Below are positions 292-62,660 of a stretch of DNA of 64,000 nt, piece by piece (the first letter of the stretch is position 1; the number at the start of each line of letters is the position of its first letter). Below the pieces are notes generated by a model. It was not told the origin of the DNA. It was given only the letters and a program-made list of their open reading frames with translations, and searched no databases. The translations under genes and the position numbers were made by a program. Source of the stretch: Heligmosomoides polygyrus polygyrus (Eukaryota > Nematoda > Chromadorea > Rhabditida > Heligmosomidae); assembly GCA_947396885.1 (NCBI GenBank), contig OX377201.1:7178934-7242933 (forward strand), read 5' to 3'.

Positions 292-577
292 GGGGGCGTG
301 TAGCGCAGTCGGAGGAGGCGCGACTGTCGCTTGCACCCGATACCAGGTTCCTCGTTCGGATTCCCCGCCCAGGCCAACCAAACCTTCCATCCCTCCTAGG
401 TCGGTGAAATGGTACCAGACTTGTCTGGGAAGGATAAAGCGCTGACTTGTTCATCGGCTGGTCACCATTGTATGGCCAAATACGCATTAAAGTTGCCTCC
501 ACGACATCCCGTAGAAGTAGAATGCGTGGCGCATTCCAAAAGGGATTGAGTAACGCCGTCCTTTATCCTTTATCCTT
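292..577 (+). mobile_element. tRNA-derived SINE, full copy 1
   Basis: Starts with GGCGTGTAGCGCAGTCGGAGG (A-box-like TAGCGCAGTCGG) and has a B-box-like segment in GTTCGGATTCCCC. The body is the window-wide consensus and ends in (TTTATCC)n. The 11-bp TAACCTGGAGT is duplicated at 281-291 and 578-588, which fixes both ends and shows retrotransposition. Confidence 0.9.
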
Positions 578-588
578 TAACCTGGAGT

Positions 589-1443
589 ACTTGAAGGGAT
601 GTAGTTTCAGGCATTCGTTCGCCACAGCTCCAGGAGAGGATATGTGTCCGATGACTGCGCTCGTGTAGATATAATCAACTGCACGTTGAAGAGCTGTGTC
701 TCATCTGGCTCATCACAAATGTCTACTACTTCCTATCCCTATAAGGATAGTTCTGTCTCGTGTGCTACGAAGTGAATTGCCTATGACTCTCTATCTCCTG
801 CTCTCCTGGTGGCACGTGTGTGAAGATGGCGTACACATGTGCAGTGCAAGTTCCTGTCGCATCGATTTTTTGTGCTGAAAATCGCTAGTTGTTGTTGTTT
901 GAAACAGTCGGGTCTTCGATAACTGTCTATGATGTTATTCTATGCTAGAAATTCATTAAAGATTTCTTCGAAGGAGTGTTTTTGTCTTCTGTATGCGAGG
1001 CATGTCCCGCTTAACTGCTGTCTCAAAGTTCACCTCACTTTTCGTGATTTTTGGTCTGGCCGCCGTGATTTCGTGGGCACTTATTCTGTAGACACGCGGT
1101 CTGTGTCTGTCTGCCGAGGCGCCCCGGCGCTATCAGACGGAACCCGTTTTATGCGCACTGAGACTGGTTTCCTTCGGCTTTTTTCCACATGGTGGCTTGA
1201 TATCTCCTAATTTGCGTTCATTCTACAACATGATGTGCTTAAGTAACTTGTTCTGATCCTTCTAGCAGTCCTTTGTTTTCCAGCGGTTCTTGGATGTTCT
1301 CTTTATCTATAAACGTAGTTTCTTTTTGTCGACAGTTTTGCTTTCCATCCGTTGAAGAAAATTCACTGAAACCTCGACATAATCGTTATCGCCCTTTCGC
1401 TGTGCGTTATCTAGTTGCCTAGTTTAAGCGCATTCCTTTCCAC
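589..1443. other. Upstream region of GFRP, no feature recognised
   Basis: No supported exon, RNA gene or repeat was seen. Open frames here (up to 93 codons at 929-1210) lack splice or family support. The GFRP promoter or trans-splice site should lie near its 3' end. Confidence 0.4.
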
Positions 1444-3776
1444 ATGCCCTATTTGCTAATATCTACGCAAATTCGCCTCGAAATTGGGCCAACGTTCGTC
1501 GGTGACAGCGAAAGCGACCAGGAGCTAATGGAACGGCTACAAGCGAAACCGTCAAGGCAGCTTGGCAACGAGTTCGTCGTGAGTTTCAATGAAGTTTCAA
1601 TGAATTCTTCCTTTATTTCCTTTTTTTACGATGATATCCCGCTTGTGAGATACTAACGAGACTGTGCTCTTGGATGGGAGTCGAACTTTTATCCTCTGCA
1701 TTCCTTCTTGAAGATGTATTTATACTTTGCGGGTGACGACGTGAGTCGAAATTCGCGTTGAACAAATTGAACAATAGATAATGATAGAGAACAAAGGACG
1801 GCGTTACTCAGTCCCTCGTGGGGTGCGCCACGCATTCTACTTCTACGGGATGTCGTGAAGGTGAACTAAATGCGTATTTGGCCATGCAATGAGTTGGTGG
1901 CCGGCCAGCTAATGGACAAATCAGCGCTTTGTAATTCCCAGACGAGTCTGATACCAGTTCGGTAACTCCGGAGGGAAGGAAGGCTTTGTTGGCCTGTGCG
2001 AGAATTCCGAGCTAGGAACCTAGTGTCGGGTGTACGTGAGAGCCAGCACCTCCTCCAACTGCGCTGCACCCGCCCTGTCATAATGAATGCACGGTATTGC
2101 TCGGCAGTCCACAGGAGTACGGATCTCGAGTGGCATTAGGAGTCCATCAGAAGTTCGCTTCAGGTGCGAGCGAATCAACCCTTTCATTTCTCGGGAGGTG
2201 GATTGCTACAACAATTGTCTAGGAAGGATAAACACTGACATATCCATCCATTGGATTCCGCAACTCAGTGTATAGGTCGAGTCGATGAGGGATAAGAGAT
2301 AAATGTCAATGAAGATCAATCCTTAAGATGCACCTCGCCTTCCACTTCAACGTGATGTCGTAGAGGCATCCGGCATACACATAGAAATGTTGTGGTCATT
2401 CGGTGGACAAATCACTGATTTTTCTTTTACGGACATGTCTGGCACGATTTTACCGACGCCGAAGAGATGGAGAGTGTGCTTGCTCTGGGCGGAGATCTGA
2501 ACCAAGAATCTGGAATTGATTACTCGCGACAGTCGACGCGTCCTCCTACTGCGCCGCCACGACCCTTATAGGCCCTTGCACACTCGACAGCGGCGGCGGC
2601 GGCAAATGCTCAAGAATAAGGCAGTGACATTGATGTCGCTGTCCTATACTTGAGCATTTGCCACTGGTGCTGCCGCTGCCTCTGCTGCTGAGTGTGGGGC
2701 AGAGCCTTGTATGCAAGTATTTCCAAAAATCTATTTCGGGCATGACCTCGCATTCCATCAGCTTCCTGCAAGCTATGCCAGCACTACGTAAAGAATACCC
2801 GTTTGACCTTTTTCTCACGGTGCAAGCGGCTGCAGAAGTAACTCTTCGGTCAGATTCAACGCTAAGCAACCTGATTCAGCAATGTGTAGGTTAGGATGGA
2901 TTTTAAGGCTCAATTGAGTTGTAGACGCATGGATTCCTTGCTCTTTTGATTTCAAAACGTCGGCTGAGGGATGAAAGATTAAAGGCCCTCACACACTTCT
3001 GCGGCAACGTCACGCGCCGCTATGGTTAAGGATAGGGCAGCGGCAACGCCGCAGAAGTGTGCGAGGGGTGACCTCGGTCATTCCCTTTTGGGATGCGTTC
3101 TACTTCTATTCATTTTACTTATGTTCCATCCATTTTAATTCAAAAGGGATGTCGTGGAGGCTATTTGAATGAGTATTTGGCCATACAATGACTTGCGATG
3201 GCCAGCTGATGGACAGGTCAGCGCTTTATACTTCCCAGAAGAGGCTAGTACCAATTCACCTACTCCAGAGGGAAGGCTTGTTTGGTTTGGTGGTAACCCG
3301 AACTAAGAACTTCTACCGCGAACGCGCGCGGCAGCATACGCCACTTCCAATGCGCCACCACACCACGTGCTTTCGGTCAAATGCGCATCCATGTGCATCC
3401 ACCACATCCGTTGAAGGTTGGATGAGTACTACGCTGTCCACAAAGCACGAACTGATTCGAAAATTTGATCAGTAGGTAGAGTTTACCCCCCCCCCCTCCA
3501 GGCATCACCTATATTGTGCAGAGCACCTTGTAGTTGTCCTTTATGGTTTCCAAGGTGAGCAGAGGATATGGTTTTGAATGCTGTGTATTTTTCATTCTTT
3601 CAGTTACATTCTGCTATTTACTGCGTTTTCTCCACAGATTACGAGTCATTCAGGAGTACATGACGTCGCTGACCCCTCGACAAGTGTTGAACATATTGGA
3701 AAAGGAGGGTTGGAAAGTGATTGGCATGGCTGGAATTGGTCAGACGTGCGCTTGGACGTTACATAGAGATGACTGA
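1444..3776 (+). CDS. GCHFR: GTP cyclohydrolase I feedback regulatory protein (GFRP)
   Basis: Two exons, 1444-1578 and 3654-3776, joined in phase 0 across a 2.1-kb intron (donor GTCGTGAGT, acceptor CATTCAG), give 85 residues plus TGA, about the length of animal GFRP. The protein opens MPYLLISTQIR, a family hallmark, continues with an acidic SDQELM segment and LGNEF, and ends with GMAGIGQT...WTLHRDD, matching the conserved C-terminal strand and GVGQT turn. In animals GFRP binds GTP cyclohydrolase I as a pentamer and mediates BH4 inhibition and phenylalanine activation, in the cytosol. The start is the first ATG of the block and fits the family N-terminus exactly. An in-frame extension past the donor (to 1656) lacks the conserved C-terminal half and is rejected. 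The intron holds diverged SINE copies. It is the first gene of the proposed operon; a C. elegans-style name would be gfrp-1. Confidence 0.93.
1792..2078 (-). mobile_element. tRNA-derived SINE copy 2
   Basis: Reverse-strand copy running from the AAAGGACGGCG tail side to the tRNA head (GCAGTTGGAGGAGG). It lies in the GFRP intron and is moderately diverged. Confidence 0.75.
2338..2566 (-). mobile_element. tRNA-derived SINE copy 3, strongly diverged
   Basis: Recognisable blocks are GATGTCGTAGAGGC, ACATGTCTGGCACGA, and a tRNA-like head at 2530-2560. A second decayed piece, + strand, lies at about 2181-2272 (GTCTAGGAAGGATAAA). Confidence 0.55.
2984..3068. mobile_element. Palindromic MITE fragment, CTTCTGCGGC type
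   Basis: The ends AGGCCCTCACACACTTCTGCGG and CCGCAGAAGTGTGCGAGGGG are inverted. The element is related to the one at 4451-4593. Confidence 0.6.
3073..3345 (-). mobile_element. tRNA-derived SINE copy 4 with internal insertion
   Basis: The body matches (CATTCCCTTTTGGGATGCG..., GGATGTCGTGGAGGC, TTTGGCCATACAATGACTTGC). About 40 bp of AT-rich sequence containing a second TTCAAAAGGGATGTC junction interrupts the tail region. Confidence 0.65.
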
Positions 3777-3843
3777 TGTTTTGTTGTTGTGTACTAATTA
3801 GTCGCTGTATCATTCCACGTGCCTTGCCTTACCTTTCTTTGTA

Positions 3844-3849: not shown

Positions 3850-3940
3850 AGTTCTATGCTCTATTCATCTACATTGTCACCATCATTTCAAGTGCTGATC
3901 TGAGCAGTAGGCGGCGTTATCTCTTCCATAACTCACATTT

Positions 3941-4031: not shown

Positions 4032-7000
4032 ATGGTGAGCACAACTTCGGTAGTCTCTTATTTTTCTCATTTTGGTTCTCACTCAGGTTCAAACGGCCAC
4101 GCTAGTGAAGCTGGCAGCTGGTGGGTTTCTGGTCGGATCAACAGCGCTATACTTAGCTCAGAAATCGGTGCAGAGAAAAGTCAGAAGACTCCCTCACTAC
4201 GTGGAGAGCTTGGAGATTGTCGCCCATCATGACCGAGCCAAGGTAATCTTATTCGCTTTCCTGGTGACTAAGGTTGCGGATTAGGACCTGTTCATACTTC
4301 GCGATGGTAGCGACGGGAGTGATTGGTTGGTCAGGCAAATCATATGTCGATTCTAGCCAAGCAATCGCCCGGCAAAAATCGATACGTATTATTTGCCTGG
4401 GTGGCCAATCGCTCTCGTTGCTCCCGTCGCGAAGTCTGAACAGGCACTTAAGGCCCCCACAGAGTTCTGCGGCAGGGCCGCGGCCCTATGCTTAACCATA
4501 GGGCAGAGACGCAGAGCTCGCCGCCGGCGGCGTCCCTGCCATATCCTTAACCATAGCGGCGAGCGGCGTTGCCGCAGAACTCTGTGGGGGCCTTTAGGTG
4601 CTTAGCGAGCGTCTCGAGGCGTCGTGCTGAATGCGCGATAAGTAGTCGAGGTTCACGACAGCTATGAATAACTTCAAGGTACGAGGGAAAAGTGGCGAGT
4701 ATATAAGGTTCTATAGAAGCCCTTGAATGCCGCCGTGGGTCGATATTCAAGTTTCTCGTGAGTTTTTGCAGTGCATTACTGACTCATTTTTTCGAGAAAT
4801 TAATTTCTTTGGAGCATTAGGTGGAATTTATACTACTGTCGCTAGGAATTGGCTCTCGCAACGCCGGGCCGCCCGGCGACTGTAAATGAATAAGTATAAA
4901 TATCGCCTTATAGGATCTATTATTTTCTGAGCAGAGTTGCCGAACTGCTAGGAGGAGTTTCATAGTCCGGAGGGAAATTTCCCCTCGCTATGACTATTGA
5001 GAAGACAATTAGTAGACTAATGGTTTCGGAAAAGAAATGTATAGAGTTCTCTGTTTTGAGAATCACGAAGAATTCCATAAGAGCCAGATACGCTGCAGAT
5101 GTGTAGACCGCCAGTGGCGGTGCCGGACATTACCCACATGTGTTGCGCTTAGCGTGTACAAAATATCCGTGACCATTAGTGTACATCCTTGCTGGATGAG
5201 AGATGGACTTGTTGAAGCTGTACGTATTGAAGAAAGCTTCTTGGTGAAAAAAGGTTTGTCTCGCGAATTCTTTTAGAAGAAGCCTATTCGAAAGTTTGTT
5301 ACGTAGATCTGAAGCTTGTTGAATAGCATTATTGTTCTGCATGAACTGCTCCATTGTTTCTTTTGGCACTATTGTACTTTCGGGACACCAGAGGTCGATG
5401 AGAGGTCGAAAGAAAAATTTCTACCCAAACTTCGCCTGGGGCTTATTTGGGGTGCTGATCACGAATTTGACATCCTTTTTTGAAATTTCGGCCGATTAGG
5501 TTATAGTGCGTAGCGGTGACTAAGGGTGTCGAGGTCATAATCACCGGTTCCGCCCAAACTTTGCCTATGGGGGTTATTTGGGGCGCTGATCACGCATCTT
5601 ACATCCGTTTTTCGTTTTACGCTGAAGTACAGTAGGTTATAGTAGGTACCGGTGCCTAAGATACGACAACCTGTTTCGCCCGAATTTCGCCCAGTAAGGA
5701 ACGCTTGGGAATATTTGAACAAGTATCTCAACTTTGCACAGTAGGCGGCATCTAATCAGCTTCTAAGCGGTTGACGTCCGTCCTGTGCACCAACCTCAGG
5801 AACGATCTGCCACTTTCCCGTTCAGATATTCCGAATAGCCACTGGTGTCGGCGCACCCAGCGCCCTCTATTGACCTCCTCTTAGTCACACAAGTTTCATC
5901 CAGTTCGACCGTGACCCCAAACCCTCCAAGAATCGGGATATTTCTTCGGAAATACTCGCAACAATCATCGCGGAAGTATTGTTCTACCGTGCCCTACCGT
6001 AATCGTCCAAAACTTATAAGACTTATAACTTAAAACTTAACTAATCGTTATCAGTACCCGAAATAACCCCCCTCCTCCTAGGCGAAGTTCGGGCAAAATC
6101 GGTAATTATGACCTCGGCAGCCTTAGGGGTCGTTTAGTGTGCGCGCGACGCGCGACGTGATGCATCTGTAGTGGCCAAATTGATCGAGCGACGCGACTGA
6201 TCAATTCGGTCACTACACATAGCATCGCGTCGCGCGTCGCGCGCACACTAAACGACCCCTTATTACGCGTAGCTACCGTAACCTACCGTAATCGGCCGAA
6301 ATTTCAAAAAGAGATGTCAGATCCGCGTTTCTGAAACTGTGTTCGTTTCCTAGCGTGTTGTCTCATGCAAACGTAATAGACATTAACATCAACATTAAAC
6401 TATTATATCTTCCTCTAATAGCCGCTTGTGAAAAAAGGGGCTTTTTAAGCTCTACTAACACGAAGAAAGAGGTCTGTGTTAGAAGAATGATGGTGTAGTA
6501 GAGTAGGGCACTATGTAAAAGGAAAGAAATAAAAGTAAAGAAGCGGTAGTAAAAAAAGCGAAGAATTTTGAAAGTGAAATGGCCTAAATATAGTGCACTT
6601 AAGGCATTGTCTAATTACTGCAAAATGATCTCGGCTTTCATAACCACATAAAATATCTCTTGAAGAATGAAATTTCAGGATGCACTAGGGCCGCCTATCC
6701 AGATTGGCTCAGTAGACCTAGCAGACCGTCGCCACAATTACGTAGGGAAGACTACTAGCATGGTAAGTGAGCTGCCTATGTCTCTTTGTGATTTCTTTGT
6801 TGGACCTTCTTGAAGGGCTAAAGCATGAATACTGGAGTTATTTGGTGCATTTGTGTGGTGCGCCACGCTTCTACTTTTATGGCATAACCGTGGAGACATG
6901 TTCGCCTATACAATGACTTTCGGTGGCTAGTCGTGAATGTTTTGCCTTCCGCACACAAGTTCGTAGTCCGGTATTTGTCGAGTTTGTGAAGGATTGAAGG

Positions 7001-8633
7001 CTTATTTGGCCTGGACGGCACCCAGAACTTTTCCTTTTTCAATTCCGGGTTCGTGAGACAGGTGGTCCTCCTCCGATTGTACTACGCGGACCCATATTAG
7101 CGTAGAGCAAATACATATTATCTTCACATACATAACGCATCCTATAAAAGGTACCGATTCACACATAATTATAAACGGCGGATATCAGGACCGGCTCACC
7201 GTACCGCAGTGCGGCTCGCGCCGAGCGCCATCCTAGATTAGAGATCGCGTCGGCGTCCACGTTGACATTCTCTTGTAAGCCCGCTATTGCCCTTTTGCCT
7301 AGCGGGTCGTAGTGCAGTGGGTAGTGGAGTTGCTTCATGCGACCGATATCGGGGGGTTCGGTTCTCCTGCGTTGTGACATTCTTGCAATTCAACTGATTA
7401 TCTGAGATTTGAGAGGTTTCGACGTCTACCAAAATTGAGCGCTTTTTTGCGCATTGCTTCAGCCGTGTGCGCTTCGCCGCTCTAAGAGCGCAGAACCCAG
7501 CCGCGAACTTCCCCTGAGCGACGAAAGCACGCACACACCCTGGGGCCGTATGCTCGTCTTCCCCCGTTGGGGGAAAATCAATCAATATCAGCATATTATA
7601 TCACGCCCCAATCCCCCATTGGGGGAGACTCGGGGTAGACGAGCATACGGCCCCTGGAGTCCCTTCCCTAGCCTGATTCTGCGATTGCATAAAGGACGCC
7701 TCATCCGGCGCCTAAGGTTACGGTGAGCCGTCGTGATATCCGCCGTTTATAATCCTGTCTGATTCACACCAAGCTTCACCTGTTCTGCATTAGGGTTTTC
7801 TGTAAATTTTTGGCCCTGATGTTTTACCCTGGACTTAGAGAGAATGAATAGAACGCCTACGTTTTTTGTGGGTGGCATCCTTTGTTTATTTTGACTGTTG
7901 TTGTTGTTTTGGCTTAGTTTGTTGCACGAAGCCTATATTGACCCTTCCAATAAACATCGAAGATCTTGTAAGAACGTAGAATCCTCACGATGGGCGCATC
8001 GTAGCGCAGTCAGATAAGGCACGGCTTGTCGCGTGTACTCCCGTTCCAGTTTCCGTGTTTAGATTTCCCGCCCACGCCAACCAAGCCAAGCCTTCCATCC
8101 CTCCGGGGTCGGTGACTTGGTACCAGACTTGTCTGGGAAGGATGAAGTGCTGACTTATTCATCGGCTGGCCACCGTAAGTCATTGTATGGCCAAATACGC
8201 ATTCAAATCGCCTCCACGACATCCCGTAGCAGAATAATGCGTGGCGCACCCCAAAGCGATTGGTTAACGCATCCTTTATAATCGATTAAGCCTGCAGTGG
8301 ATAAATCACATTCCTCTGTGTGGATTGTGCCCTACTCATTGCTGCTGCTTCAAAGTCTGACGTTGTTGTAGTTGCGGATACCAGTGACCGGAAAGATAGC
8401 GGGTGGTTATATGGACGTGATGGCTGTCAGAGAAAATGAGACCTCGCCTTTTGTAACGGCAAAGATAAGGTCAGTGGAGAGTATTTCTATACCAAACGCT
8501 ATGAAGCGCGTAATCCATCAGCTTCGTTTCCAGACTAATCTTGGACGATTCCGCAGTTTCTATCTATGACACCGGGAAATGGAAAGATGTGGTTGCCGAC
8601 AGTGCCACAAAGACAGCTCAGGGTCACCAATAG
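4032..8633 (+). CDS. COA1: COA1-like mitochondrial respiratory-complex assembly factor
   Basis: Four exons: 4032-4034 (ATG alone), 4087-4242, 6679-6762, 8372-8469 plus 8534-8633 as the split last part, with introns of 52 bp, 2.4 kb, 1.6 kb and 64 bp. All phases agree and the total is 146 residues, the size of human COA1. Residues about 8-28 form one membrane segment followed by a basic RKVRR stretch. Then come D-ALGPPI-QIGSVDL-DR (about 54-72), LRIPVTG and a strand-rich C-terminus, the order seen in the COA1/Tim21-like family. COA1 acts at the inner mitochondrial membrane in assembly of complexes IV and I. The start is forced by the donor directly after ATG (ATG|GTGAGC), because reading on into the intron gives an unrelated frame. 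The gene lies second in the operon. The large introns carry two MITEs, a MULE-like element and SINE copies. Confidence 0.85.
4284..4447. mobile_element. PIF/Harbinger-like MITE, TGTTCATACTTCGCG type
   Basis: Terminal inverted repeats GGACCTGTTCATACTTCGCGA / TCGCGAAGTCTGAACAGGCAC are flanked by TTA at 4281-4283 and 4448-4450. It lies in COA1 intron 2, directly beside the next MITE, the two sharing one TTA. Confidence 0.75.
4451..4593. mobile_element. PIF/Harbinger-like MITE, CAGAGTTCTGCGGC type
   Basis: A near-perfect palindrome with ends AGGCCCCCACAGAGTTCTGC and its inverse, TTA duplications at 4448-4450 and 4594-4596, and a GC-rich interior. Confidence 0.75.
5371..5700. repeat. CTGATCACGAA repeat family, array 1
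   Basis: Successive units carry GGTTATTTGGGGTGCTGATC, a 'gacatcc' word and a GGTTA-GGTA word. The same words recur at 17.88-18.9 kb and at 24.77-24.99 kb. The family is not recognised. Confidence 0.6.
6126..6259. mobile_element. PIF/Harbinger-like MITE, TTTAGTGTGCG type
   Basis: Palindrome with ends GGGGTCGTTTAGTGTGCGCG and its inverse, TTA at 6123-6125 and 6260-6262. A relative is embedded at about 55127-55256. Confidence 0.75.
6851..7098 (-). mobile_element. tRNA-derived SINE copy 5, diverged
   Basis: Keeps GTGCGCCACGCTTCTACTTTT, ATACAATGACTTTCGG and a tRNA-like head (CCTCCGATTGTACTACGCG). Confidence 0.6.
7165..7760. mobile_element. MULE-like non-autonomous element with 9-bp duplication
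   Basis: Inverted ends of about 35 bp (ATTATAAACGGCGGATATCA and its inverse) are flanked by GATTCACAC at 7156-7164 and 7761-7769; 9-bp duplications are typical of Mutator-like elements. It contains a tRNA-like segment (7308-7375, B-box-like GGTTCGGTTCTCC) and a nested 105-bp palindrome at 7545-7655. A related right half lies at 16570-17015. Confidence 0.6.
7991..8276 (+). mobile_element. tRNA-derived SINE copy 6
   Basis: Head GGGCGCATCGTAGCGCAGTC, body GTCTGGGAAGGATGAAGTGC and tail ACGCATCCTTTATAATCG. It lies in COA1 intron 3, 96 bp before exon 8372-8469. Confidence 0.8.
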
Positions 8634-8853: not shown

Positions 8854-11800
8854 ATGGCTATATCCAGCCTCATCCAAGCAGTACAAGGTAGGTCTGCTTC
8901 AATTATTCGAATTGCATCTGAAGGATCCGTGCCCTTTTAGACGTAGCATGGCCTGAATTTCTTCAACCACACGTAGAAGTGCTTCTGTTGTGGATCACGT
9001 GGGCGGTGGATTATATCGATCTGGACTATTTGGAAGTTAGTGTTGTGATTCATTTCGAGGGTAGAATTTGAGAGAAGGTCCGTGGTTATTCGAAGTGCTC
9101 TGCAGGGACGCCAGTATTATTTTTTTGTTGTTGAAGTAATACTCAGTGGTTCTAATAGAGAATGCTTGCACTGTGCGGAAGCGCGTCAGCCAGTCAGAAG
9201 TGATCATTCACGCCCGCTTTGGGTGAAGCCACTGTTCGATGGGGTCCAATACTGTGATTGCCGCGCGCGTTCCTACCAGGGTTGTGCGTTTAACGGTTAA
9301 CGATTTAGCGGTTTACCGGTTTCACTGGCATTTTCGCTATAAATTCTTTTAACGAAAATTTTTGGTAATTTCTCAAATTTACCGGAAAATTTAACGACTC
9401 TTACCAAAGTTCGCTATCATGCACTTTTTTCTGAAGTATCCGGTTTTGCTCCTTGCACAGCTAAATGTTTCCAAAAAGTAGTAGTTGAAGGTGAAAGTCA
9501 TTCTTTCATCGATGGAAAAGATGACGATTGTAATAATTAAATTGATATTTTAAATAAATAAATGAACAAATAAATAATTTCAAAAAACAGTTAGACTGTT
9601 ATTCCAAAAGAAGTATAACAGTATTAGATCGAATGTCGAATGTTCCAGAAACGTTTTTGTAGAGCTTCAACAAAGCCTTTATCTTTTCTAAAGCATCCAC
9701 AATATAGATAGTTGTACTTGTACGTTGTTGCGCTTCTGATGGTTGTGTTTGTTGTAGGATGTTCGTTGCTTTTAGGGCGTTGTTTGTTTTAGAATGAAAT
9801 ATGAAGTGAAGTTGATATGGTATACTGAACGTGATTGTATGGCTCTCGCTTTTACTACATCACCGCCCCTTAAAACTAGTTATTTTTGAGGAAATATTGA
9901 AATTAAAAAAATGAACGGATTTACCGAATTTACCGGAATTTACCGACGAATTTTCGCGTTAAAAATATGCAGTAAAAAATTTGCCGGCCGCATGTTAGCG
10001 CACACCCCTGGTTCCTACCTCACCGTGAAGACTACATTGCCGACAAGTACCCATTCTGCCACTCAGGTCTTGTAGTTTGCTTAAGAAACATAGAGGCATC
10101 CATGCAAGCGGTATAGTTGACATTATTTGAAGCGAGCATACCATCATTCAGGAATCGATTAGTTTGTAACTTACATTTGTTCTTGGTTTCGCATACTCAT
10201 TTTCGTCACTGTGTTGATGGCAGTTGTTGGCAGTTTCCCGATATTGCTCTGTTGACGTCTAGGAAGCCGCTGTAGCTATAAGTCTATCAGTTTTCAGTTA
10301 CTAGTGGAATTCTTTCTGGCCTTGCGCTCAGTTCAGTTTTTGGGCTATAGTTTACTTATAGTCTCGCGAAATTTTCGAGTATTCGAATGGTTTCGAATAT
10401 CGAAAAGTTTTGAGCATTCGCAATCGAATATATTCGAAAATCTTAAAATCGTTAGTTCCGTGAGCTTCATGGGTGTAACTTTGACCTTTCAATAGTGAAG
10501 TTCGACTTGGTCAATTCTTTATTGACAACGTTTCGGGCTGTAAGCCCTTCTTCAGGTCTAAAAACAGTAATATTGCACATCTTTACAACAACACTTTACA
10601 AACAAATAGCGACCTTTCCAGACAGACCTGGGAATCACAGGGAGGAGGAGGGGCCGGGGATGTTCAGTGGTGCATTCAACGCACTCCTGGCTCCTCCTCC
10701 TCCCTGTGATTCCCAGGTCTGTCTGGAAAGTTCGCTATTTGTTTGTAAAGTGTTGTTGTAAAGATGTGCAATATTACTGTTTTTAGACCTGAAGAAGGGC
10801 TTACAGCCCGAAACGTTGTCAATAAAGAATTGACCAAGTAGAGCTTCACTATTGAAAAGTCAAGTATTCGAAAATCGTTGTTTTTCTGAATATCCGAATT
10901 CGAGCACATCCGAAAAACGCTATTTTTGAACACTCGAGTTCGAATACATTTGAAAGTCGCGATTTTTCTGAATATTCGAATTCGAATATTCAAATTCGAA
11001 TGAAAATCATTCGAATACCTACTCCAATGGGTCATTGGAGCATGAGTGTAGGATATAGTGAGAGAGGAGATGCCTCCAGTGTTTAGGTCTCTGTCAATTC
11101 TCCGGGGTCAGTAAATTACAAACATGCTTTTCTTGGAGCGGATATCACTGCATTTTCCATCAAATAACTTTCACTGCACAGTGAATACACGCATTCTAGG
11201 AAACAGTATGATATCACGTAGGAGTGGAGGGCGTGGTTCATTATAAAGTTGCTGACTGTCCTTGGTCTTTAAATCTTTTCTGTTTCGTGGTACTGGTGTG
11301 ATAGGATATTCGTTTTTTTTCGAGTGTTTTTTTAAAGTGGATCAATCTAAAGCCTCGGTTAAACGCCAGAACTAAAGTAATGGCATGTGCTAGGATGTGC
11401 CTAGTAATTAACGTCTTCTTTCATCACGAAAGCTTGTCGAATTGAAAATAACTTGCAGGATAGGCGAAGAATCAGTCAGCGTTTTGTCCCAACAAGGAAA
11501 TCTGTGCGATTCAGTGGGTGTACGAAAATGTGTACAGAACCAGAGATTGAAGGAACGTGTTTGTTCTGTGGTAGCCAGATGAAGGGCGCCTCAACGTGGG
11601 TTGGGATCAGTTCCGCCCTGCCATCGTTGTCCATGGTGAAACAACCAACTTTGTTCCCCTTTACTGATTAAGATGAAGGGCTTAGCTAGGTTATCTGTGA
11701 GAGGAGGCGCTTAGTATGGCAATCGGAGGAGGTGCCTGTTGTTGTCTACATCCCGAGTCAGGGTGTTGGTTCGGGTTTCCCTCCTATGCCAACCAAGCTT

Positions 11801-50685: not shown

Positions 50686-50972
50686 TGGTGCGTGTAGCGC
50701 AGTCGGAAGAGGTGCTGGCTGTCGCGTGCACACGTTGCCAGGTTCCTGGTTGGGATTTCCCACACAAGCCAACCAAGTCCTCCATCCCCACTGGGTCGGT
50801 GAATTAGTATCAGGCTTGTCGGAAAGGAGAAAGTACTTACTTGTTCTGGACACTGCAAGTCATAATATAGGCCAAATGCGCATCTAAAGTGCCTCTATGA
50901 CATCCTTTAAAAGTGGAGTGCGTGGCGCATCCAAAAAGGGATATGATAACGCCATCTTTTATCCTTCTATCT
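50686..50972 (+). mobile_element. tRNA-derived SINE copy 12 with 11-bp duplication
   Basis: Head TGGTGCGTGTAGCGCAGTCG, B-box region degenerate (GGTTGGGATTTCC). ACTTTCGTCCT is repeated at 50675-50685 and 50973-50983. Confidence 0.85.
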
Positions 50973-51473
50973 ACTTTCGTCCTGAGAGATGGACCTCCAT
51001 CGTTTTAGCGTCATTTCAGGCCTCATTAGGCTCTCAGTTGCTTTCTGACCATCCGAATCTGTCACGAATCGCAAGAATTTATCAGAAATGGGCTCCTTCC
51101 TTCTGATCGCTCTCCTTTGAGCTGGCACAGCTCCATTTGTCACCCTTGACTGGAGAAGATTAGATAGGCGGAATACCGTTGTATGTATGCAGCGAAAAAA
51201 ATGTAGTAATCTAGAGATGATAGGTATTCTTCGGAAGCGTAGCAAAAATAAAGGGTAGATCTTCTATTTTTTTTAAGGAGTACGGAACACTGAGTGGGTG
51301 ACTAGTTAGTGAAATTTAGTACATCAATTAATATTTAATATATCATGAGTGCGCAAAAACTGACAGTAATCTCCTTACAGCTTAGTAGAAGTACATAGAA
51401 AGTTACTGATACCAACGTCTTATTTATTTTTGACTTATCTAAAGTGTCTTAAAAGTGGAAGAATAAAGAGCGA

Positions 51474-51728
51474 CGCTAATCAATTCCTTTATGGAATCAA
51501 CCATACACTTCTTCGTCGGGAGATTCTGCAGGCGTTCTGAATGCGTACTTGGGCTACACCTTGAGTTGTGATAGCCAGACGATAAAAAAATCAGCGTTCT
51601 TCTTTTCCCAGAAATATCTAACAGCAGTTCAGGGATAGAAGAATTGGTTGGTCATGACGGAACTCGAACCAAGAACCTGGATTCGGGATGAACGATACGT
51701 CGGCGCTTGCTCCAGCCGCGCAACTCAT
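51474..51728 (-). mobile_element. tRNA-derived SINE copy 13, strongly diverged
   Basis: Order of blocks is preserved (AATCAATTCCTTTATGGAA, GAATGCGTACTTGGGC, GAACTCGAACCAAGAACCTG). The B-box-like side is better kept than the body. Confidence 0.55.
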
Positions 51729-52640: not shown

Positions 52641-52934
52641 GAGGGCGCGTGTAGCACAGTCGGAGGAGGTGCGACTGTCGCGTGCACCCGATACCAGGTT
52701 CCTGGTTCGGATTTCCCGCCCGGGCCAACCAAGCCTTCCATCCCTCCGTGGTCGGTGAATTGGTACCAGACTTGTCTGGGAAGGATAAAGCGCTGACTTG
52801 TTCATCGGCTGGCCACCGCAAGTCATTGTATGGCCAAATACGCATTCATGTCGCCTCCACGACATCCCGTAGAAGTAGAATGCGCTGGCGCATCCCAGAA
52901 GGGATTGAGTAACGCCGTACTTTATCCTTTATTT
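52641..52934 (+). mobile_element. tRNA-derived SINE copy 14
   Basis: Near-consensus copy with tail TTTATCCTTT; accagagttt (52631-52640) and actagagttt (52935-52944) match 9 of 10. Confidence 0.85.
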
Positions 52935-53208: not shown

Positions 53209-54127
53209 ATGTCGCAGATTAGTGCGGAGCAGCAGCCAAACTTGCACCATGATGTAAGGATTTACGAGGCTTTTTTGAATACTAATAATACATACCTAGC
53301 TTGCTCTAGATGCGCGGTAGTGCAGTCGGAGAAGGCACGAGCTGTCGTTTGCACACGATTCCAGGTCCTTGATTCGGGTTTCTCGCCCAGGCCAGCAAGA
53401 TTTCTATGCATTCGAGGTCAATGAATTGGAATCAGATTTGATACTCCCCCACTCTAATACTTATTCCCATTGGCTAGCCTCTACAAGTCAATGTATGTAT
53501 AGGGCAAGTACGTTCATGTGCTTCTACGATTCTCGTAGAAGAGGCGTGCATGGCGCATCCCAAAGAGGATTTATAACGGCGTCCGTTATTCGTTATCTTT
53601 ACCTTATCTTTTACAAGCGAGACACGCCGTTGGACACGTCGTAGCACTTGTAAAGGATAAAAGACAACGTCAATTAACCTCTTTTGGAATGTGCCATGTA
53701 TTGCAATTCAACAGGGTGTCGTGGAGGCAAATTGAATGCGCATTTGGCATATACAATGACCTACCATGACCGGTCCATGGAGAAGTCAGTGTTTTATCCT
53801 TCCCATAGAAGGTATCATTCCGCTACTCAGGAGAAATGAAAAGCTGTAGTGGCCTGTGCGGAAAATCCGAACCCGTAGTGCTCGCGACAACCGGCGCATT
53901 ATCCGACTGCGCTACATTGCGCCCACAAATGCCGAGGTGGCCTAAAACTAGCCAAAGCATTAACTAAATAAACTCATTTTCTCTAGTATCACCATCACCG
54001 TCCAATGTTTTATGACTTCAGCCTTGCCGCTACATGGGATCTCAAGTTGGTCACTGCAGTGACGGCTGTTGCTACTACGACGAGTACAATTCACTCCAAG
54101 GTCATGTCTGCGCATCTTATCCAGCAG
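53209..54127 (+). CDS. Candidate two-exon fragment of a small Cys-rich protein
   Basis: Exon 53209-53253 (ATG, MSQISAEQQPNLHHD, donor GAT|GTAAGG) can join in phase 0 to 54022-54127 (acceptor GACTTCAG, donor CCAGCAG|GTAAGT), which reads PCRYMGSQVGHCSDGCCYYD and carries six Cys in total. A second frame of the same exon pair is also open (LAATWDLKLVTAV...), so the frame is undecided. A SINE with perfect 10-bp duplications sits 9 nt after the second donor. No family is recognised. Confidence 0.3.
53312..53600 (+). mobile_element. tRNA-derived SINE copy 15, diverged
   Basis: Head GCGCGGTAGTGCAGTCGGAG, B-box GATTCGGGTTTCTCGCC, tail CGTCCGTTATTCGTTATC. It lies between the two candidate Cys-rich exons. 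Confidence 0.65.
53650..53922 (-). mobile_element. tRNA-derived SINE copy 16, diverged
   Basis: AAAGGATAAAAGACAACGTC tail to CGACTGCGCTACATTGCGCC head. Confidence 0.65.
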
Positions 54128-54145: not shown

Positions 54146-54451
54146 TAAAAGGATAAAGGATAAAGGATAAAGGACGGCGTTATTCAATCCCCTTTGGGAT
54201 GCGCAACGCATTCTACTTCTACGGGATGTCGCGGAGGCGAGTTGCATGCGTATTTGGCCATACAATGAATTGCGGTGGCCAGCCAATGAACAAGTCAGCG
54301 CTTCATCCTTCCCAGACAAGTCTGGTACCAATTCACCGACCCCGGAGGGATGGAAGGCTTGGTTGGCCTGGGCGGGAAATCCAAATCAGGAACCTGGTAT
54401 CGGGTGCACGCGGCAGTCGGCTCCTCCTCCAACTGCGCTCCACGCGCCCTA
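54146..54451 (-). mobile_element. tRNA-derived SINE copy 17 with perfect 10-bp duplication
   Basis: Three to four GGATAAA tail units, full body and head. AACAAAACGA is duplicated at 54136-54145 and 54452-54461. Confidence 0.9.
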
Positions 54452-54529: not shown

Positions 54530-54818
54530 CGACTGTAGTGCAGTCGGAGGAGGTGCCAGCTGTCGCGTGCAATCGATACCAGGTTTCTGGTTCGGATTCC
54601 CCCCAGGACTACCAAGCTTCCATCTCTCCGTGGTCAGAGAATTGGTACCGCACTTGTCTGGAAGAGATAAAGAGCTGAGCTTTTCATAGGCAGGGCACTG
54701 AAAGTCGTTGTATGGACAATTATGCATTCAAACCAGCTCCACGATATCCTGTAGAAGTGGAATGCGTAGCGCATCCCAGAAGGAATTGAGTAACGTCGTC
54801 CTTTATCCTTTACCCTTT
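54530..54818 (+). mobile_element. tRNA-derived SINE copy 18
   Basis: TGTAGTGCAGTCGGAGGAGG head, GGTTCGGATTCCCC B-box region, tail CTTTATCCTTTACCC. Confidence 0.8.
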
Positions 54819-56235: not shown

Positions 56236-56526
56236 GGAATGAAAGGACAAAGGAAAACATTATTCAATCAATTTTTGGGATGCGCCATGCATTGCACTTC
56301 TACGGGATGTAGTGGATGCAATCTGAATGCGTATTTGGCCTATACCATGACCTGGCCAACCGAAGTGCGAGTTAGAAGTTTATCCTTTCGAGACAAGTCT
56401 GGCACCCCTCATCAACCACGGAGGAATGGAAGGCTTGCTTAGCCTGGGCGGGAATATAGAACCAAGAACGTGGAATTGCGTGCACGTTACAGTAGATGCT
56501 TCTTCCGGGAGCACTGCTCCACGCCC
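56236..56526 (-). mobile_element. tRNA-derived SINE copy 19
   Basis: GAAAGGACAAAGGAAAACAT tail side to GGGAGCACTGCTCCACGCCC head; an (AAAT)n run follows at 56527-56563. Confidence 0.7.
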
Positions 56527-56811: not shown

Positions 56812-59800
56812 ATGACGCTCCTGCCGATGCTCGTGTTCCATCCCAACATTTCAGCCGTGCGCCCTTCGAATCCAGTTGTGACCTGTGATGTCGAGGTGAA
56901 CGGCAGCCCGACGGCGGCTAAGAAGAGAAGGTGAGGAGGCTCAGAACTAGTTGCCCAGTAGAAGACGATGCGTAAAGTCACAGCTTGGACGTTAATATTC
57001 GGAAACTGGACAGGTTAAGGGTACAGGGTGAGGATTTGCGGTGCATGGAGTAGTGGAAAATAGCTATCAAAACTCTAGCGCTAGGCGGGACTCGAACCCG
57101 TATCCTCTGATTACCGAAACAACACCGGTGCTTCAGTGACCTAAACCAGCAATCATGTAAAGTCATAGAAGAATAAGGCGTGACGTATCTATTGCTCCTT
57201 CTTTATTCCAAATAAGGAGCACTAATTCAAGTCAGCTTCTTTAAGGCTTAAGTGGCCGATAGGAGGTGTAGATGTTGCGTCCGATCAAAAAGCGCCGGTC
57301 ATGTAATGGAGTAGAACATTCTCTCCCGGTTAGCAGGACGCACGGGTTCGAGTCCCGCCCTGCGCTAGAGTTTTGAAGGCAACAAGGCATCATTGTAAGA
57401 TGGTCTGCTTTAGTATTGAAGGTTTTTTCAGTTTTTTAGGAAATTAAATAGGTGAGTTATCCTACAGGTATCCGGACTATAGTTAGGGTTTAAGGTAATT
57501 AAGTTTTAGGGTAGTTAAGGGTATTGGTTAAGGTTAACAAATCCGCTTATAGGATACGCCACACATCCTTCATCTCCGCGATATCGTGGAGTTGCGCATC
57601 ACGCGATTATATTGACCGGCAGAGTTCACAACAAATAAACAATATCGATCGGATGGTTGTTAGATTTGATCGATGCTTGCCTAGACTGGACTTGGAGTAG
57701 GATAAAGGATAAAGGACGGCTTTACTCAATTCCTTTTGGGATGCGCCAGCGCATTCTGCTTCTACGGGCTGTCGTGGAGGCGACATGAATGCGTATTTGG
57801 CCATACAATGACTTGCGATGGCCAGCCGATGAACAAGTCAGCGCTTTATCCTTACCAGACACGTCTGGTACCAATTCACCGACCCCGGAGCAATGGAAGG
57901 CTTGGTTGGCCTGGGCGAAAAATCCGAATCAGGAACCTGGTATCGGGTGCACGCGACAGTCGCGCCTCCTCCGACTGCGCTACACGCGCCTCTGGAGTAG
58001 GAATCACATAAATATGATGGTCGATGATCTAGCTTGACAACAAGTGAAAATGTCGATCGAAAAGCTATTATCGATCAATTTTTAACGACTTTAGCCAAGA
58101 GTTTGCCGTTGGAAGTGCGAGTCGCCTGAATAAGAGTGAACCTAAATGGCGTTAAGAAAAATGGTTCTGATTAGGAAACAGACCCGTGTGCGTACAAAGA
58201 ACTCAGGATGCGGTTTATTTTCAACACCTGCGTCGAATTTGCCACATCCCAGAGTTCATTTCCTTGGTCAGGCTCAACGTCACTGGAAAGAAACTTCTGA
58301 CGCGTAGCTCTAGCCAGTGATCAGTTCCTGCTCTACGTTGGATTGGCTTCTGATTTATGAAAAAAATAAAAAAGTAAAAAAAAACGAGAGAAAGTTAGCT
58401 CATTAGTTCCCCCTTCCCACTCACCTGTTCTGCTTACCATTTCCTAAAGAATGAGCCGTACAATTTCATACTTCAGATTGGAAAAACATGCTCTTGCTCA
58501 GCTAGTCTCTTCAGGTACGATTTCTTCGATGCTGTGGAGGAACATGAAGAGTTTAAAAGAGATCCATGCAAAAAATGTTGCGTAAGGTGGGTTACTTTAG
58601 TCCGATGTGCTATATGTATGCTACATTCCATAGCAACTAGGCATTTGTTATAGCAAAACAACTGATCAAAATGTTCCAGGTGTTATTATTTCTTTTAATG
58701 TTAAAATTTTAATTTTATTAGTCCTTCTTTGATTTTTAAAGGCTACGGTTATATGACATGATGTCCGTACTTATACAATAACCTGAACAAGTTACTGCTA
58801 AGACCGACTTACAGGCAGACCGATGGTAGCGACATTACGCTCAACTTGGAAGACCTTGTCGACATAGTCCTACTGGCTGCGAATAACTCCGCCAGTGCTA
58901 TCGAAGAGATACCAAGCCAGACTCCATCACGGCAACGTAAGAGTGTTTATATTGAGAAAGCAACCCCTCTTTTTCATCATTTACAGAGGATCTATTCTAG
59001 GTATTATCCAAGTTTTTAGGCGCGTGGAGCGCAGTCGGAGGAGGCGCCGTTCCTGGTTCGGATTTCCCGCCCAGGCCAACCAGGCCTTCCATTGCTCCGG
59101 GGTCGGTGGATTGGTATCAGACTTGTCTGGGAAGGACAAAGCGCTGACTTTTCAGCGGCTTGCCACCGCAAGTCATTGTATGGCCAAATACGCATTCAAA
59201 TTGCCTCCACGACATCCCGTAGAAGTAGAATGCGTGGCGCATCCCAAAGAGGATTGAATAACGCCGTCCTTTACCCTTTATCCTTTATCCAAGTTTTTCT
59301 AGCTGCACTTGTGAAAATTTTCTGGCATCAGCTATGATATTTCTAAAAATAACCGCGTCATGTAGTGACACGGACAAGTCGTTAATATGGCCTACATGGG
59401 GAAGCAGGAACTGGCCCGACTATTGACCCATCGAACTGACATTCCGGAGGGCATGGAGCGCGCACAGGCCAATCACCTACGAGCCCGCGAGAGAGAGCAC
59501 GTAGGTAGTGGACAGACGGTGCATGATTGGCTAGCGCGTGTCCGCCCTCCCGTAGAGGCCATATTAACGACTTGTACTTACATAGCTCTTGCACCCATGG
59601 CTTGTCATTAGGAGGGCGATCCTTGTGTAAGTATGAAGGATAAACTGATAAAGGACGGCGTCACTCAATCCATTTTGAGATGCGCCACGCATTCTTCTTC
59701 TACGGGATGTCGTGGAGGCGATTTGAATGCGTATTTGGCCATACAATGACTTGCGGTAGCCAGCCGATGAACAAGTCAGCGCTTTATCCTTCTCAGATAA

Positions 59801-60261
59801 GTTTGGTACAAATTTATCGAGCCCGGAGGGGTGGAAGGCTTGATTGGCCTGGGCGGGAAATCTGAACCAAGAACCTGGTAGCGGGTGGACCCGATAGCCG
59901 GCACCATCTTCGACTGCGCTACACGCGCCCTGCATAGGCATAGTCTCACAGAACCACATATTTTCTGTTCAGGAAGACCGGATACGCGAGAAAACAACAA
60001 GAGAGCTTCATGTCGCTATCGAGAGAAACAAAAGGAAAAGTAAGTGCTAATACCGCTTCGAAGAAATGAAAGCCCACTATTCAAATGGTAAATTAATTGA
60101 AGTTTAGGTTGCGAAACCTGAAGAAGGAATGCACCGAGTTGGAGGAGACCAACGTCATGCTCAAAAAATTCGTTGCTAATCTCGAAACTGAGGTGGCCGA
60201 GTACAGAATGAAGATTGCTGCGCTCCTCAAGTCTGCTCAGTCGAATTCGGGGCATGTGTAA
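56812..60261 (+). CDS. ATF4/ATF5-type bZIP transcription factor
   Basis: Five exons, 56812-56930, 58477-58581, 58815-58936, 59973-60039 and 60108-60261, join in phase to give 188 residues plus TAA. Residues about 121-138 form a bZIP basic region containing NNKRASCRYREKQK, which has the N-K-x-A-[AS]-x-R-Y-R-x-K pattern of ATF4-like proteins. The zipper follows with strict heptads at L142, L149, L156, L163, Y170 and L177. An acidic-hydrophobic stretch (LNLEDLVDIVLLAA, about 84-97) may serve activation. ATF4-class factors drive amino-acid and stress-response genes in the nucleus. The exon 3 acceptor is a tandem CAG-GCAG; using the second acceptor would shift the exon 2 frame to IGKTCSCSAS..., which is also open, so exon 2 frame is the least certain part. 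The start is the first ATG in the open frame after 56788. Introns contain SINE copies at 57.7, 59.0 and 59.6 kb. Confidence 0.75.
57077..57148 (-). tRNA. tRNA-like sequence or pseudogene (minus)
   Basis: The minus strand has a perfect T-arm (CGGGTTCGAGTCCCG) and an A-box-like TAGGTCACTGAAGCA at normal spacing. The acceptor stem is poor and the CCA-side flank GCGCTAGAGTTTTGA is shared with the copy at 57293, so it is more likely tRNA-derived than a functional tRNA. Confidence 0.4.
57293..57368 (+). tRNA. tRNA-like sequence or pseudogene (plus)
   Basis: A perfect T-arm (CGGGTTCGAGTCCCG) and five acceptor pairs AGCGC/GCGCT. The D-arm lacks a clean A-box and the anticodon stem (TCC/GGA) is weak. 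It lies in bZIP intron 1, opposite in orientation to the copy at 57077-57148. Confidence 0.4.
57703..57992 (-). mobile_element. tRNA-derived SINE copy 20 with perfect 10-bp duplication
   Basis: Near-consensus. TGGAGTAGGA is duplicated at 57693-57702 and 57993-58002. It lies in bZIP intron 1. Confidence 0.9.
59018..59284 (+). mobile_element. tRNA-derived SINE copy 21 with 14-bp duplication
   Basis: The head has a deletion of about 25 bp between the A- and B-boxes. TTATCCAAGTTTTT is duplicated at 59004-59017 and 59285-59298. It lies in bZIP intron 3. Confidence 0.9.
59636..59932 (-). mobile_element. tRNA-derived SINE copy 22
   Basis: GATAAACTGATAAAGGACGG tail side to CGACTGCGCTACACGCGCCC head; no clear duplication. 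It lies in bZIP intron 3. Confidence 0.85.
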
Positions 60262-60492: not shown

Positions 60493-60660
60493 GGGGCCGG
60501 ATCATCATCGATTTACAGCAATTTAGCAGAGAAAATTACAGCCGAAATCCCTGATAGCGCGGCTTATCAAGTGATATGGTGAGCGATAAGCCGCGTTATC
60601 TGAGTTTTCCGTTGTGAATTCTCTGTCAAAGTTGTGTAAGTCGTTGATGAATCCGACCGC
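60493..60660. mobile_element. GATTCATCAACGACTTA foldback copy
   Basis: Ends GGGGCCGGATCATCATCGAT and GTCGTTGATGAATCCGACC; interior GCGGCTTATCAAGTGATATG as in the other copies. Confidence 0.75.
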
Positions 60661-60904
60661 TGGTCTTACATGGATATTTTCGGCGAAACTCAGTTCTATG
60701 GACCTATAGTGTTTGGTAAATCTGCAATAACGTTGTTTAGTAAATCGTTTTTTCTTGTTATGAATCTAGTCCCTTGTCTATTGCATTTAAGTTGCCAAAA
60801 AGAAAATTCCTTGGCTGATTCTTCTCACGTTGGCCGCGTTACGAACATCCTGCGATCGAAAATTTTTCGCCGACGTGCGGTCGGACAAGAAGGCAGGTCA
60901 GCTC

Positions 60905-62660
60905 CAGGGTCAAGCGTGGGGTTCGATTTTTGCCAAAATTTACGACCACCCCCCCCTTCCCAGAGTGGATCTGGTATGACCCGCCTTTGTGTAGACCACC
61001 GTTTTATTCCTATCCGCACCGAATTCTTTAAAATTTTTATGCGATTTTTGTACCGTTTCATAGGTCCTTCTTTCCAGGTACAGTATCGACTGTGTCAGAT
61101 CAGTTCAAGAAAAAGTGCTACTGAATAACTGTTTGATTTAGTAAGTTGTTAGAAAAAACGCTGATAAAGGTTTTGTGTATGTAACCTTTTGATAATAATA
61201 TTTTGTTTGTTTACTGTTGAAAATAAAGCACTTTTGAGAGTACTTGTCGAATTATTCACAACGAGTTCATCTTTTCAGGCTTTCCGAGCATATCGTAGAC
61301 ACGGCCCATTTTTGTACCTGAAGGAGCGACATCTGCATTCGAAATTGTATTCTATACAATGCCGAGTGTTAATTGCTAAAGCTGACTTAAGTGCTTTTCC
61401 TACAAGATTTTTGGAAGCGCTCTTCGGAGCGATGACGGAATGGGAACCGGAGAATGGACTTGTCACGGAAGTAATTTTCTCTCTTCTGCAAGAAACAGCG
61501 TCAGAGTTGTGCCCAATAAAATTTTATTCCCAGTTTGATACACGGCAATAAAACCTGTTTTTTTTTTGAAACGATCCTCTGTATGAAGAGTCGCTCCGAT
61601 TTGTATGATTTGCCGAAAATTTTCGACACCGTTAATTACATGGAGGCCGCTATTTTTACAGCCTGCTTTTTAAAGCGTAGAACCCACACTTCTTATTGTT
61701 TTAAAAGCTCTGTAAATTTTTCAGAGATGTCGCACAAACCCCGAAATTGGTAGATTACGTGGAGCCGTTGCGTTCGCCAATATCATCGATCGCCACTGAA
61801 GGTGGCCTTCTCGCGGAAAAATTTCCTATCTTCTGAAGGAATGAACACACGAGAGTGAAATTGTGCTTCATGGATTTTTAAGTCATGAGTGTTACACAGT
61901 AAAAAGCTGAACTTTTTCGCAGCGATCTCCGATATGATAAGGGCGTATCGTATTTAAAATTTTCGCTTTACAAGAAAAATTAATTTTTATCTGAAGCAGG
62001 TCACGCATGCAGTAAAAAACTTGCCACAAAAAGTTTCAAGTTTTGTTCAATGCACAGTGTGAAAATCATGGTTTTTGAAAGGAATAGATTGGATCGACCC
62101 GTGGTCGATATGCCACCGACGTCGTAGGATGGAGGCCTTAGATTTTTGTACGAAAAAAATTGAAGAGATTTTGTATAAATAATTATATTCCGGTAAGACT
62201 TTCGAATTTTAAAAGAGTTAATAGCCTTTTGAAAACTAGAGCAAAAGCGCTTTCGAACCATGTAGGAATTAGTTTTCAACAGGGAGGTCATTATAGGGGG
62301 CGGTGGGAATTCGATTTTTGGCACGTATTTCTGCATGCATTGGGCGCGTGTAGCGCAGTCGGAGGAGGCGCGACTGTCGCGTGCACCCGATACCAAGTTC
62401 CTGGTTCGGATTTCCCGCCCAGGCCAACCAAGCCTTCCATCCCTCCGGGGTCGGTGAATTGGTACCATACTTGTCTGGGAAGGATAAAGCGCTGACTTGT
62501 TCATCGGCTGGCCACCGCAAGTCATTGTATGGCCAAATACGCATTCATGTCGCCTCCACGACATCCCGTAGAAGTAGAATGCGCTGGCGCATCCCAAAAA
62601 GGATTGAGTAACGCCGTCCTTTATCCTTTATTTCTGCATGGACCAGAAGGCTAAGGCTTC
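60905..62660 (+). repeat. Third copy of the internal repeat of the 4.2-kb composite element
   Basis: CAGGGTCAAGCGTGGGGTTC through TTTTTGGCACGTATTTCTGC parallels 41455-43060 in the same order (TGTGTAGACCACCGTTTTA, GTTAGAAAAAACGCTGATAA, GAATTTTTCAGAG words). It is not flanked by the mariner-like ends here, so it is a repeat in its own right. A SINE splits its right end at 62338. Confidence 0.7.
62338..62628 (+). mobile_element. tRNA-derived SINE copy 23, near-consensus, perfect 12-bp duplication
   Basis: GGGCGCGTGTAGCGCAGTCG head, tail TTTATCCTTTA. TATTTCTGCATG is duplicated at 62326-62337 and 62629-62640. It is inserted in the repeat copy at 60905-62660. Confidence 0.93.

What the first reader, a model, noticed from the sequence alone, without database searches (positions are those of the whole stretch)
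292..62628. Abundant tRNA-derived SINE family with (TTTATCC)n tail
About 23 copies on both strands share a 290-bp consensus with A-box TAGCGCAGTCGG, B-box GGTTCGGATTTCC and a TTTATCC tail rather than poly(A). Several have perfect duplications of 10-14 bp (for example 281-291/578-588, 54136-54145/54452-54461, 59004-59017/59285-59298, 62326-62337/62629-62640). Nematode SINEs are rarely described. Copies range from near-identical to strongly decayed, implying long and recent activity.
Basis: seen in the sequence. Interest (0 to 1): 0.75.

Follow-up and report, generated by a model that had tools for sequence, protein, structure and literature searches.

The report
Recently active SINE in strongylid nematode
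This is a family of about 290-base parasitic DNA elements that copy themselves through RNA in a parasitic roundworm genome; it is a genuine, recently active family of a known general kind whose unusual seven-base tail seems to help it pair with its landing sites.

Summary
Confirmed: a discrete 278-bp SINE body with a (TTTATCC)n tail, in 28 pieces (19 aligned over 200 bp) on both strands, about 10% of the window; a reversed-window control gave none. The four cited duplications are exact. The host assembly (656 Mb; probably Heligmosomoides, inferred) holds 10,322 exact matches of one 24-mer (reversed-pattern control 0). Window density is about six times the mean; a crude estimate is 33,000-43,000 copies. 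Three copies on three large contigs have identical bodies: recent activity. Of 37 young copies, 30 carry duplications of 9-18 bp (11 of 1332 swapped pairings). These start with TA in 17 of 30 and overlap the tail (55 bases against 10.9 expected), which fits target-primed reverse transcription primed by pairing with the tail. tRNA origin is only partly supported: tRNA models do not match, but the head aligns end to end with a host tRNA-Arg (p about 0.002). No partner LINE was found; 21 LINE loci with readable 3' ends have other tails. New observation: the body holds AAGGATAAAG, a 10-nt perfect complement of the tail (2 of 4000 shuffles); function unproven, pair changes inconclusive. Verdict: new member of a known kind.

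The parts
62326..62337 (+). 5' target-site duplication TATTTCTGCATG of the least diverged window copy
   Evidence: exact match to 62629-62640
62342..62631 (+). Least diverged SINE copy (1.7% from consensus)
   Evidence: 5' end GGGCGCG taken from young copies
62351..62362 (+). A-box-like TAGCGCAGTCGG
   Evidence: sequence; consensus position 8
62403..62415 (+). B-box-like GGTTCGGATTTCC (departs from the usual B box as I recall it)
   Evidence: sequence; consensus position 61
62480..62489 (+). Internal box AAGGATAAAG, perfect complement of CTTTATCCTT in the tail
   Evidence: 2 of 4000 shuffles reach 10 nt
62620..62631 (+). (TTTATCC)n tail
62629..62640 (+). 3' TSD, overlapping the tail by TAT
292..588 (+). 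SINE copy, 4.3% diverged, with 11-bp TSD 281-291/578-588
1783..2075 (-). SINE copy, 17.4%
2170..2273 (+). SINE fragment
2316..2556 (-). SINE copy, 29%
3078..3312 (-). SINE fragment in two aligned pieces
6851..7018 (-). Decayed SINE fragment in two aligned pieces
8001..8279 (+). SINE copy, 11%
11719..11822 (+). SINE fragment, perhaps the 5' part of the copy continued at 12915
   Evidence: link is inference
12915..13041 (+). SINE fragment
13781..14064 (-). SINE copy, 14.9%
17017..17049 (+). Solo 3' end next to the end of a terminal-inverted-repeat element
31179..32722 (-). One SINE copy split by a 1,263-bp mariner at 31232-32494 with duplicated TA
38717..39018 (+). SINE copy, 7.8%, tail with TTATCC units
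39590..39735 (-). 3' fragment(s)
50688..50971 (+). SINE copy, 17%, TSD ACTTTCGTCCT
51459..51724 (-). SINE copy, 30.9%
52643..52932 (+). SINE copy, 2.8%; shares GCGCTGGCGC and CATGTCGCC with 57700 and 62342 (young subfamily, my reading of the alignment)
53312..53596 (+). SINE copy, 30.2%
53651..53916 (-). SINE copy, 23%
54148..54449 (-). SINE copy, 5.2%, TSD 54136-54145/54452-54461
54534..54818 (+). SINE copy, 15.1%
56242..56507 (-). SINE copy, 19.2%
57540..57591 (-). SINE fragment
57700..57991 (-). SINE copy, 4.9%, young subfamily, TSD TCCTACTCCA
59018..59290 (+). SINE copy, 5.4%, internal deletion, TSD 59004-59017/59285-59298
59647..59930 (-). SINE copy, 8.9%

Best explanation
This is a SINE: a non-coding, about 290-bp retroposon of a strongylid nematode, probably Heligmosomoides. 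Shown: a discrete element whose young copies start at GG(G)CGCGTG, variable-length target-site duplications, a variable (TTTATCC)n tail, over 10,000 exact genomic matches of one internal 24-mer, and copies identical in body on different large contigs. Inferred: RNA polymerase III transcribes it from internal A and B boxes, probably of tRNA (Arg-like) descent; a LINE-encoded endonuclease and reverse transcriptase nicks the target so that the duplication usually starts with TA; the nicked strand pairs with UUUAUCC units of the RNA tail and primes reverse transcription there. Slippage on the 7-nt units would set the tail length.
For: Copies and control; divergence range and no TTTT run in the consensus; TSDs in 30 of 37 young copies against 11 of 1332 swapped pairings, lengths 9-18; tail/TSD overlap 55 bases against a null mean of 10.9 and maximum 40 in 5000 draws, TSD start TA in 17 of 30; 10,322 exact 24-mers, reversed-pattern control 0; 3 of 38 copies equal the young consensus and three bodies are identical as strings, 1 similar flank pair among 74 flanks; head against host tRNA-Arg(TCG) p 0.002; template slippage on a non-poly(A) tail is described as likely for UnaL2 in PMC3747384 (passages seen).
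Against: No tRNA model matches the head. The B box is off consensus. No LINE with this 3' end or tail was found among 30 RVT_1 loci (they reach only 1.5 kb beyond the RT domain) or three further downstream stretches. No transcript data. TSDs were taken as the longest exact match, which favours overlap with the tail; the null copes with this only in part. The 37 copies were chosen for similarity to one young copy, so the TSD figures hold for young copies only.
Confidence: 0.88

Rival explanations
1. A SINE whose head is not tRNA-derived (another Pol III promoter, or a LINE 5' fragment), with the A-box match and tRNA resemblance being convergent.
For: No tRNA covariance match even at E<=10; ARAGORN 0; A-to-B spacing of 53, longer than in ordinary tRNAs by my recall; a non-SINE window 80-mer scores as high against the tRNA (48266, 38.5 against 36.5).
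Against: The A box is canonical by recall. The head aligns end to end with host tRNA-Arg(TCG) (Markov p 0.002), and the best-scoring GC-rich places in the window include the heads of two SINE copies (38718, 53852). The head's RNA fold closes GGGCG/CGCCC like an acceptor stem, z only -1.65.
Confidence: 0.2
2. Non-autonomous DNA transposon (MITE) rather than a retroposon.
For: Short, non-coding, with flanking duplications.
Against: TSD length varies from 9 to 18, the tail is variable and one-ended, and the ends show no terminal inverted repeats (sequence, not tested by a tool).
Confidence: 0.02
3. 3' ends of a LINE, copied by 5' truncation.
For: Non-LTR-style tail and TSDs.
Against: Young copies begin at nearly one 5' end and are flanked there by the TSD. 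None of the RT loci whose end could be read ends in this sequence; the SINE copies in L078, L101 and L115 match the element over almost its whole length.
Confidence: 0.03
4. The tail-to-target overlap is an artefact of choosing the longest TSD.
For: TSDs were defined by longest exact match, which can absorb matching tail bases.
Against: 55 bases seen against a null mean of 10.9 (maximum 40 of 5000 draws); nine window copies picked by me gave 18 against 2.8, with the same bias.
Confidence: 0.1

Closest known systems
tRNA-type SINEs mobilised by RTE- or CR1-clade LINEs (table in PMC3747384; passages seen)
   Same: Pol III-like boxes, TSDs, non-poly(A) short-repeat tail, probable stringent 3' recognition.
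   Different: tRNA source only suggested and no partner LINE found; 7-nt TTTATCC tail complementary to a box inside the body.
UnaL2 (PMC3747384; passages seen)
   Same: Tail of short repeats (TGTAA in UnaL2) with likely template slippage.
   Different: Different repeat and host.
SINEs of AviRTE in birds; AviRTE itself is shared with filarial nematodes (PMC4844689; passages seen)
   Same: SINEs riding on an RTE LINE that is also found in nematodes.
   Different: Those heads are tRNA-Glu, 5S, 28S or GC-rich; sequences not compared here.
HcRep/TcRep repeats of Haemonchus and Teladorsagia (PMC3156134; passages seen)
   Same: Abundant short repeats in related strongylids; over 3000 BLASTN matches reported there.
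SINE entries of Strongylida repeat libraries (PMC13195028, section 6 and passages; PMC4053716, passages)
   Same: SINEs are a named class there; H. contortus was given 2 SINE families. This family may already be in the curated Heligmosomoides library.
   Different: No description of its anatomy in what I saw; supplementary libraries could not be read.

Membership tests
SINE (general) | Short, non-coding, dispersed on both strands with unrelated flanks | tested here: met
   5205 forward, 5117 reverse; 1 related flank pair among 74 flanks
SINE (general) | Variable-length target-site duplications | tested here: met
   30 of 37, lengths 9-18; control 11 of 1332
SINE (general) | 3' tail of simple repeats of variable number | tested here: met
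SINE (general) | Pol III transcription from an internal promoter | tested here: inconclusive
   A box canonical, B box off consensus, no TTTT in the consensus; no expression data
SINE (general) | 3' end shared with a partner LINE (stringent type) | tested here: inconclusive
   none among 30 RVT_1 loci (21 with a readable LINE tail, 3 unclear, 6 LTR-like by frame length) nor 3 further stretches; 36,619 RT candidates exist
tRNA-derived SINE | Head matches a tRNA model or gene | tested here: inconclusive
   models not matched; host tRNA-Arg(TCG) p 0.002, Arg(CCT) p 0.005, Lys(TTT) p 0.015 by local alignment; only three isotypes available
Known SINE superfamilies (CORE, V-SINE, Ceph, Meta and others; names recalled) | Conserved central domain | not tested
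   no SINE library on hand
HcRep/TcRep | Sequence similarity | not testable with these tools
   accession sequences not held

The most novel reading that the evidence does not exclude
The SINE carries its own complement to its tail: AAGGATAAAG, about 1.4 units of the complement of TTTATCC, the layout of a telomerase-like template (analogy recalled). It may lock the 3' half of the RNA into a closed domain in which any tail unit can sit, placing the reverse transcriptase. More boldly, it may template or renew the tail repeats. Together with TA-started targets that pair with the tail, the tail would act as a self-maintained targeting sequence.
Probability: 0.15. Interest if true: 0.75.

Novelty: new member of a known kind. 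Interest (0 to 1): 0.45.

Why it matters
SINEs of nematodes are annotated in repeat libraries but little described. The listings showed no paper on this family; that is the open-access library only, long lists were cut (20 of 103 papers shown, 20 of 514), and supplements were not read. A recently active family with clean insertion sites would give population markers for a parasite model. The tail/target overlap makes target-primed initiation testable, and small RNAs bound by the secreted Argonaute exWAGO are reported to come from SINEs among other transposons in Strongylida (PMC13195028, passages seen).

Tried and rejected
Partner LINE: RVT_1 search of the own genome, 30 loci clustered and their ends read, three further stretches. 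On checking I found that loci on the minus strand had not been turned; one search repeats the step with strands set. Of 30 loci, 6 look LTR-like by frame length, 3 show no clear end (L084, L092, L103), and 21 end in (TAA)n, (GAT)n, (GAA)n or ACAATT-like repeats. No locus holds TTTATCC twice in a row on either strand. Of the further stretches, L114 ends in TA repeats, L115 in (GAA)n, L116 has no clear end. In one search the SINE head was aligned to a tRNA-Lys on the wrong strand; that result is withdrawn and replaced, which raised the case for tRNA descent, so I lowered the rival 'head not tRNA-derived' from 0.3 to 0.2. Tail arrays of 6 or more units lie at 4 sites, 3 of them at SINE copies. 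Of the 150 longest window reading frames none matched an RT in Pfam at E<=0.01. External relatives: viral contigs four patterns, 0 hits, genome contigs 0. The antisense frame of the SINE found no protein at E<=0.001. The IL4_i_Ig Pfam hit (best E 0.0006 among 150 frames) was not among the 20 frames looked at singly and is taken as chance. CpG sites: 0.160 changes per site against 0.131 elsewhere. Nematode splice-site enrichment gave no signal. Box-tail pair changes: of 45 changed cells in 58 copies 22 still pair and 23 do not, inconclusive; 12 duplicate loci were left out before that count. The fold of the single copy 62342-62631 does not use the box-tail pairing, the consensus with three tail units does, pairing probability 0.92. 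A first version of that test failed and was rerun. The genome count with 3 mismatches and the subfamily counts did not complete.

Full report
Observation. A consensus of the 19 long copies (287 nt with part of the tail) finds them and further fragments in the window, and nothing in the reversed window. My hand-set list of 28 pieces covers 6,330 bases, 9.9% of the window. A copy at 31179-32722 is interrupted by a 1,263-bp mariner with a duplicated TA, so the mariner came after the SINE. Twelve of 19 copies lie within 12.5 kb (simulation p = 0.001; the span was chosen after seeing the data).

Host. The whole assembly answered once the service was up: 656 Mb, the window lies on contig C39, and six contigs of 97-112 Mb make up 631.7 Mb. 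A window reading frame has its only hit in Heligmosomoides polygyrus (32 of 39 identical), although that stretch may itself be a repeat. PMC13195028 (section 6) gives 649 Mb for H. bakeri. Heligmosomoides is therefore likely, by inference.

Abundance. One exact internal 24-mer occurs 10,322 times (5,205 forward, 5,117 reverse), and its reversed control 0 times. The genome mean predicts 1.0 in 64 kb; the window has 6 (Poisson P 0.0006). Scaling by copies per exact match gives about 33,000-43,000 copies. This is crude, because it rests on 6 matches in one window.

Age. Divergence from the consensus in the window is 1.7-30.9%. Among 38 young copies (37 fetched of the best 40 genome matches, plus the window's own; the two matches on small contigs C483 and C741 were not fetched), 3 equal the young consensus, and three loci on C39, C27 and C1 have 278-nt bodies identical as strings. 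CpG sites change little faster than others.

Insertion. In 37 young copies, 30 have an exact TSD of 8 or more at the expected place (lengths 9-18), against 11 of 1332 swapped pairings. The 5' end is mostly GG or GGG before CGCGTG, sometimes with a few extra bases. TSDs start with TA in 17 of 30. The first TSD bases often also fit the next bases of the tail: 55 bases in total, null mean 10.9, maximum 40 in 5000 draws; nine window copies gave 18 against 2.8. This is what priming of reverse transcription by pairing between the nicked target strand and the repeat tail would leave. Choosing the longest TSD inflates the figure somewhat, and 8 of the 30 show no overlap at all.

Promoter and head. The A box is TAGCGCAGTCGG at consensus position 8 and the B-like box starts at 61. 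No TTTT occurs in the consensus. ARAGORN and Rfam at gathering and at E<=10 give no tRNA in the SINE stretches searched. Against three host tRNAs, the 80-nt head aligns best with tRNA-Arg(TCG), over almost the whole tRNA: score 36.5, Markov p 0.002, window 80-mers p 0.0013; Arg(CCT) p 0.005, Lys(TTT) p 0.015. In a scan of GC-rich window 80-mers the best places against this tRNA were heads of SINE copies (38718, then 53852), but one place that is not a SINE (48266) also scored 38.5. tRNA descent, perhaps from an Arg tRNA, is thus likely but not proven.

Tail. The longest complement of the tail in the body is AAGGATAAAG, 10 nt; 2 of 4000 Markov shuffles reach 10. A consensus with three tail units folds with this box on the tail (mean probability 0.92); the single copy with fewer units does not. 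The counts of pair changes do not decide.

Partner. With strands set correctly, 21 of 30 RT loci show a LINE 3' end, in (TAA)n, (GAT)n, (GAA)n or ACAATT-like repeats; 3 are unclear and 6 look LTR-like. Two further stretches end in TA and GAA repeats, a third is unclear. In L077, L078 and L115 a SINE copy sits at or beside the LINE tail, which fits the TA-rich targets. No partner with TTTATCC was found; the sample is a small part of 36,619 RT candidates.

Conclusion. An ordinary kind of element, well supported as a SINE, little described in this worm group, recently active, with a tail that matches both its landing sites and a box inside itself. The last point is the part worth testing.

Noticed in passing
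G000 C39:54.28-54.67 Mb (loci L009-L020, L022-L038): Tandem array of tRNA-Lys(TTT) genes, one per about 196 bp (14 tRNA calls in the 3,073 bp of L030, 13 of them Lys and 1 read as a stop-type), a tRNA satellite; 62 of the 63 scored tRNA matches of the genome lie here.
   Followed up: partly
L021 (G000 C27:39031941-39035013): Array of tRNA-Arg(TCG) on + and tRNA-Arg(CCT) on - strand, 15 genes in 3,073 bp.
   Followed up: partly
window 7156-7765 and about 16581-17016: A second repeat with roughly 45-bp terminal inverted repeats (7156-7203/7719-7765) and a tRNA-like interior (GTAGTGCAGTGGGTAGCG ... GGGGTTCGGTTCTCC); its end abuts a solo SINE 3' end at 17017.
   Followed up: partly
window 46547-47609: Mariner in two reading frames (- strand); the 3' one is 95% identical to an unnamed database protein and 69% to the next.
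   Followed up: no
window 10616-10728 and 14959-15204: Long palindromes that fold as hairpins, giving many sub-threshold microRNA matches; likely MITEs (inference).
   Followed up: no
G000 C39:24832820 (L109): A TTTATCC microsatellite of over 200 bp with no SINE on its 5' side but a SINE 3' fragment downstream of it.
   Followed up: no
L077, L078, L115: SINE copies inserted at or next to the (TAA)n or GAA tail of LINE copies.
   Followed up: partly
window 48266-48345 (+): A GC-rich stretch outside the SINE copies that aligns with host tRNA-Arg(TCG) at score 38.5.
   Followed up: no
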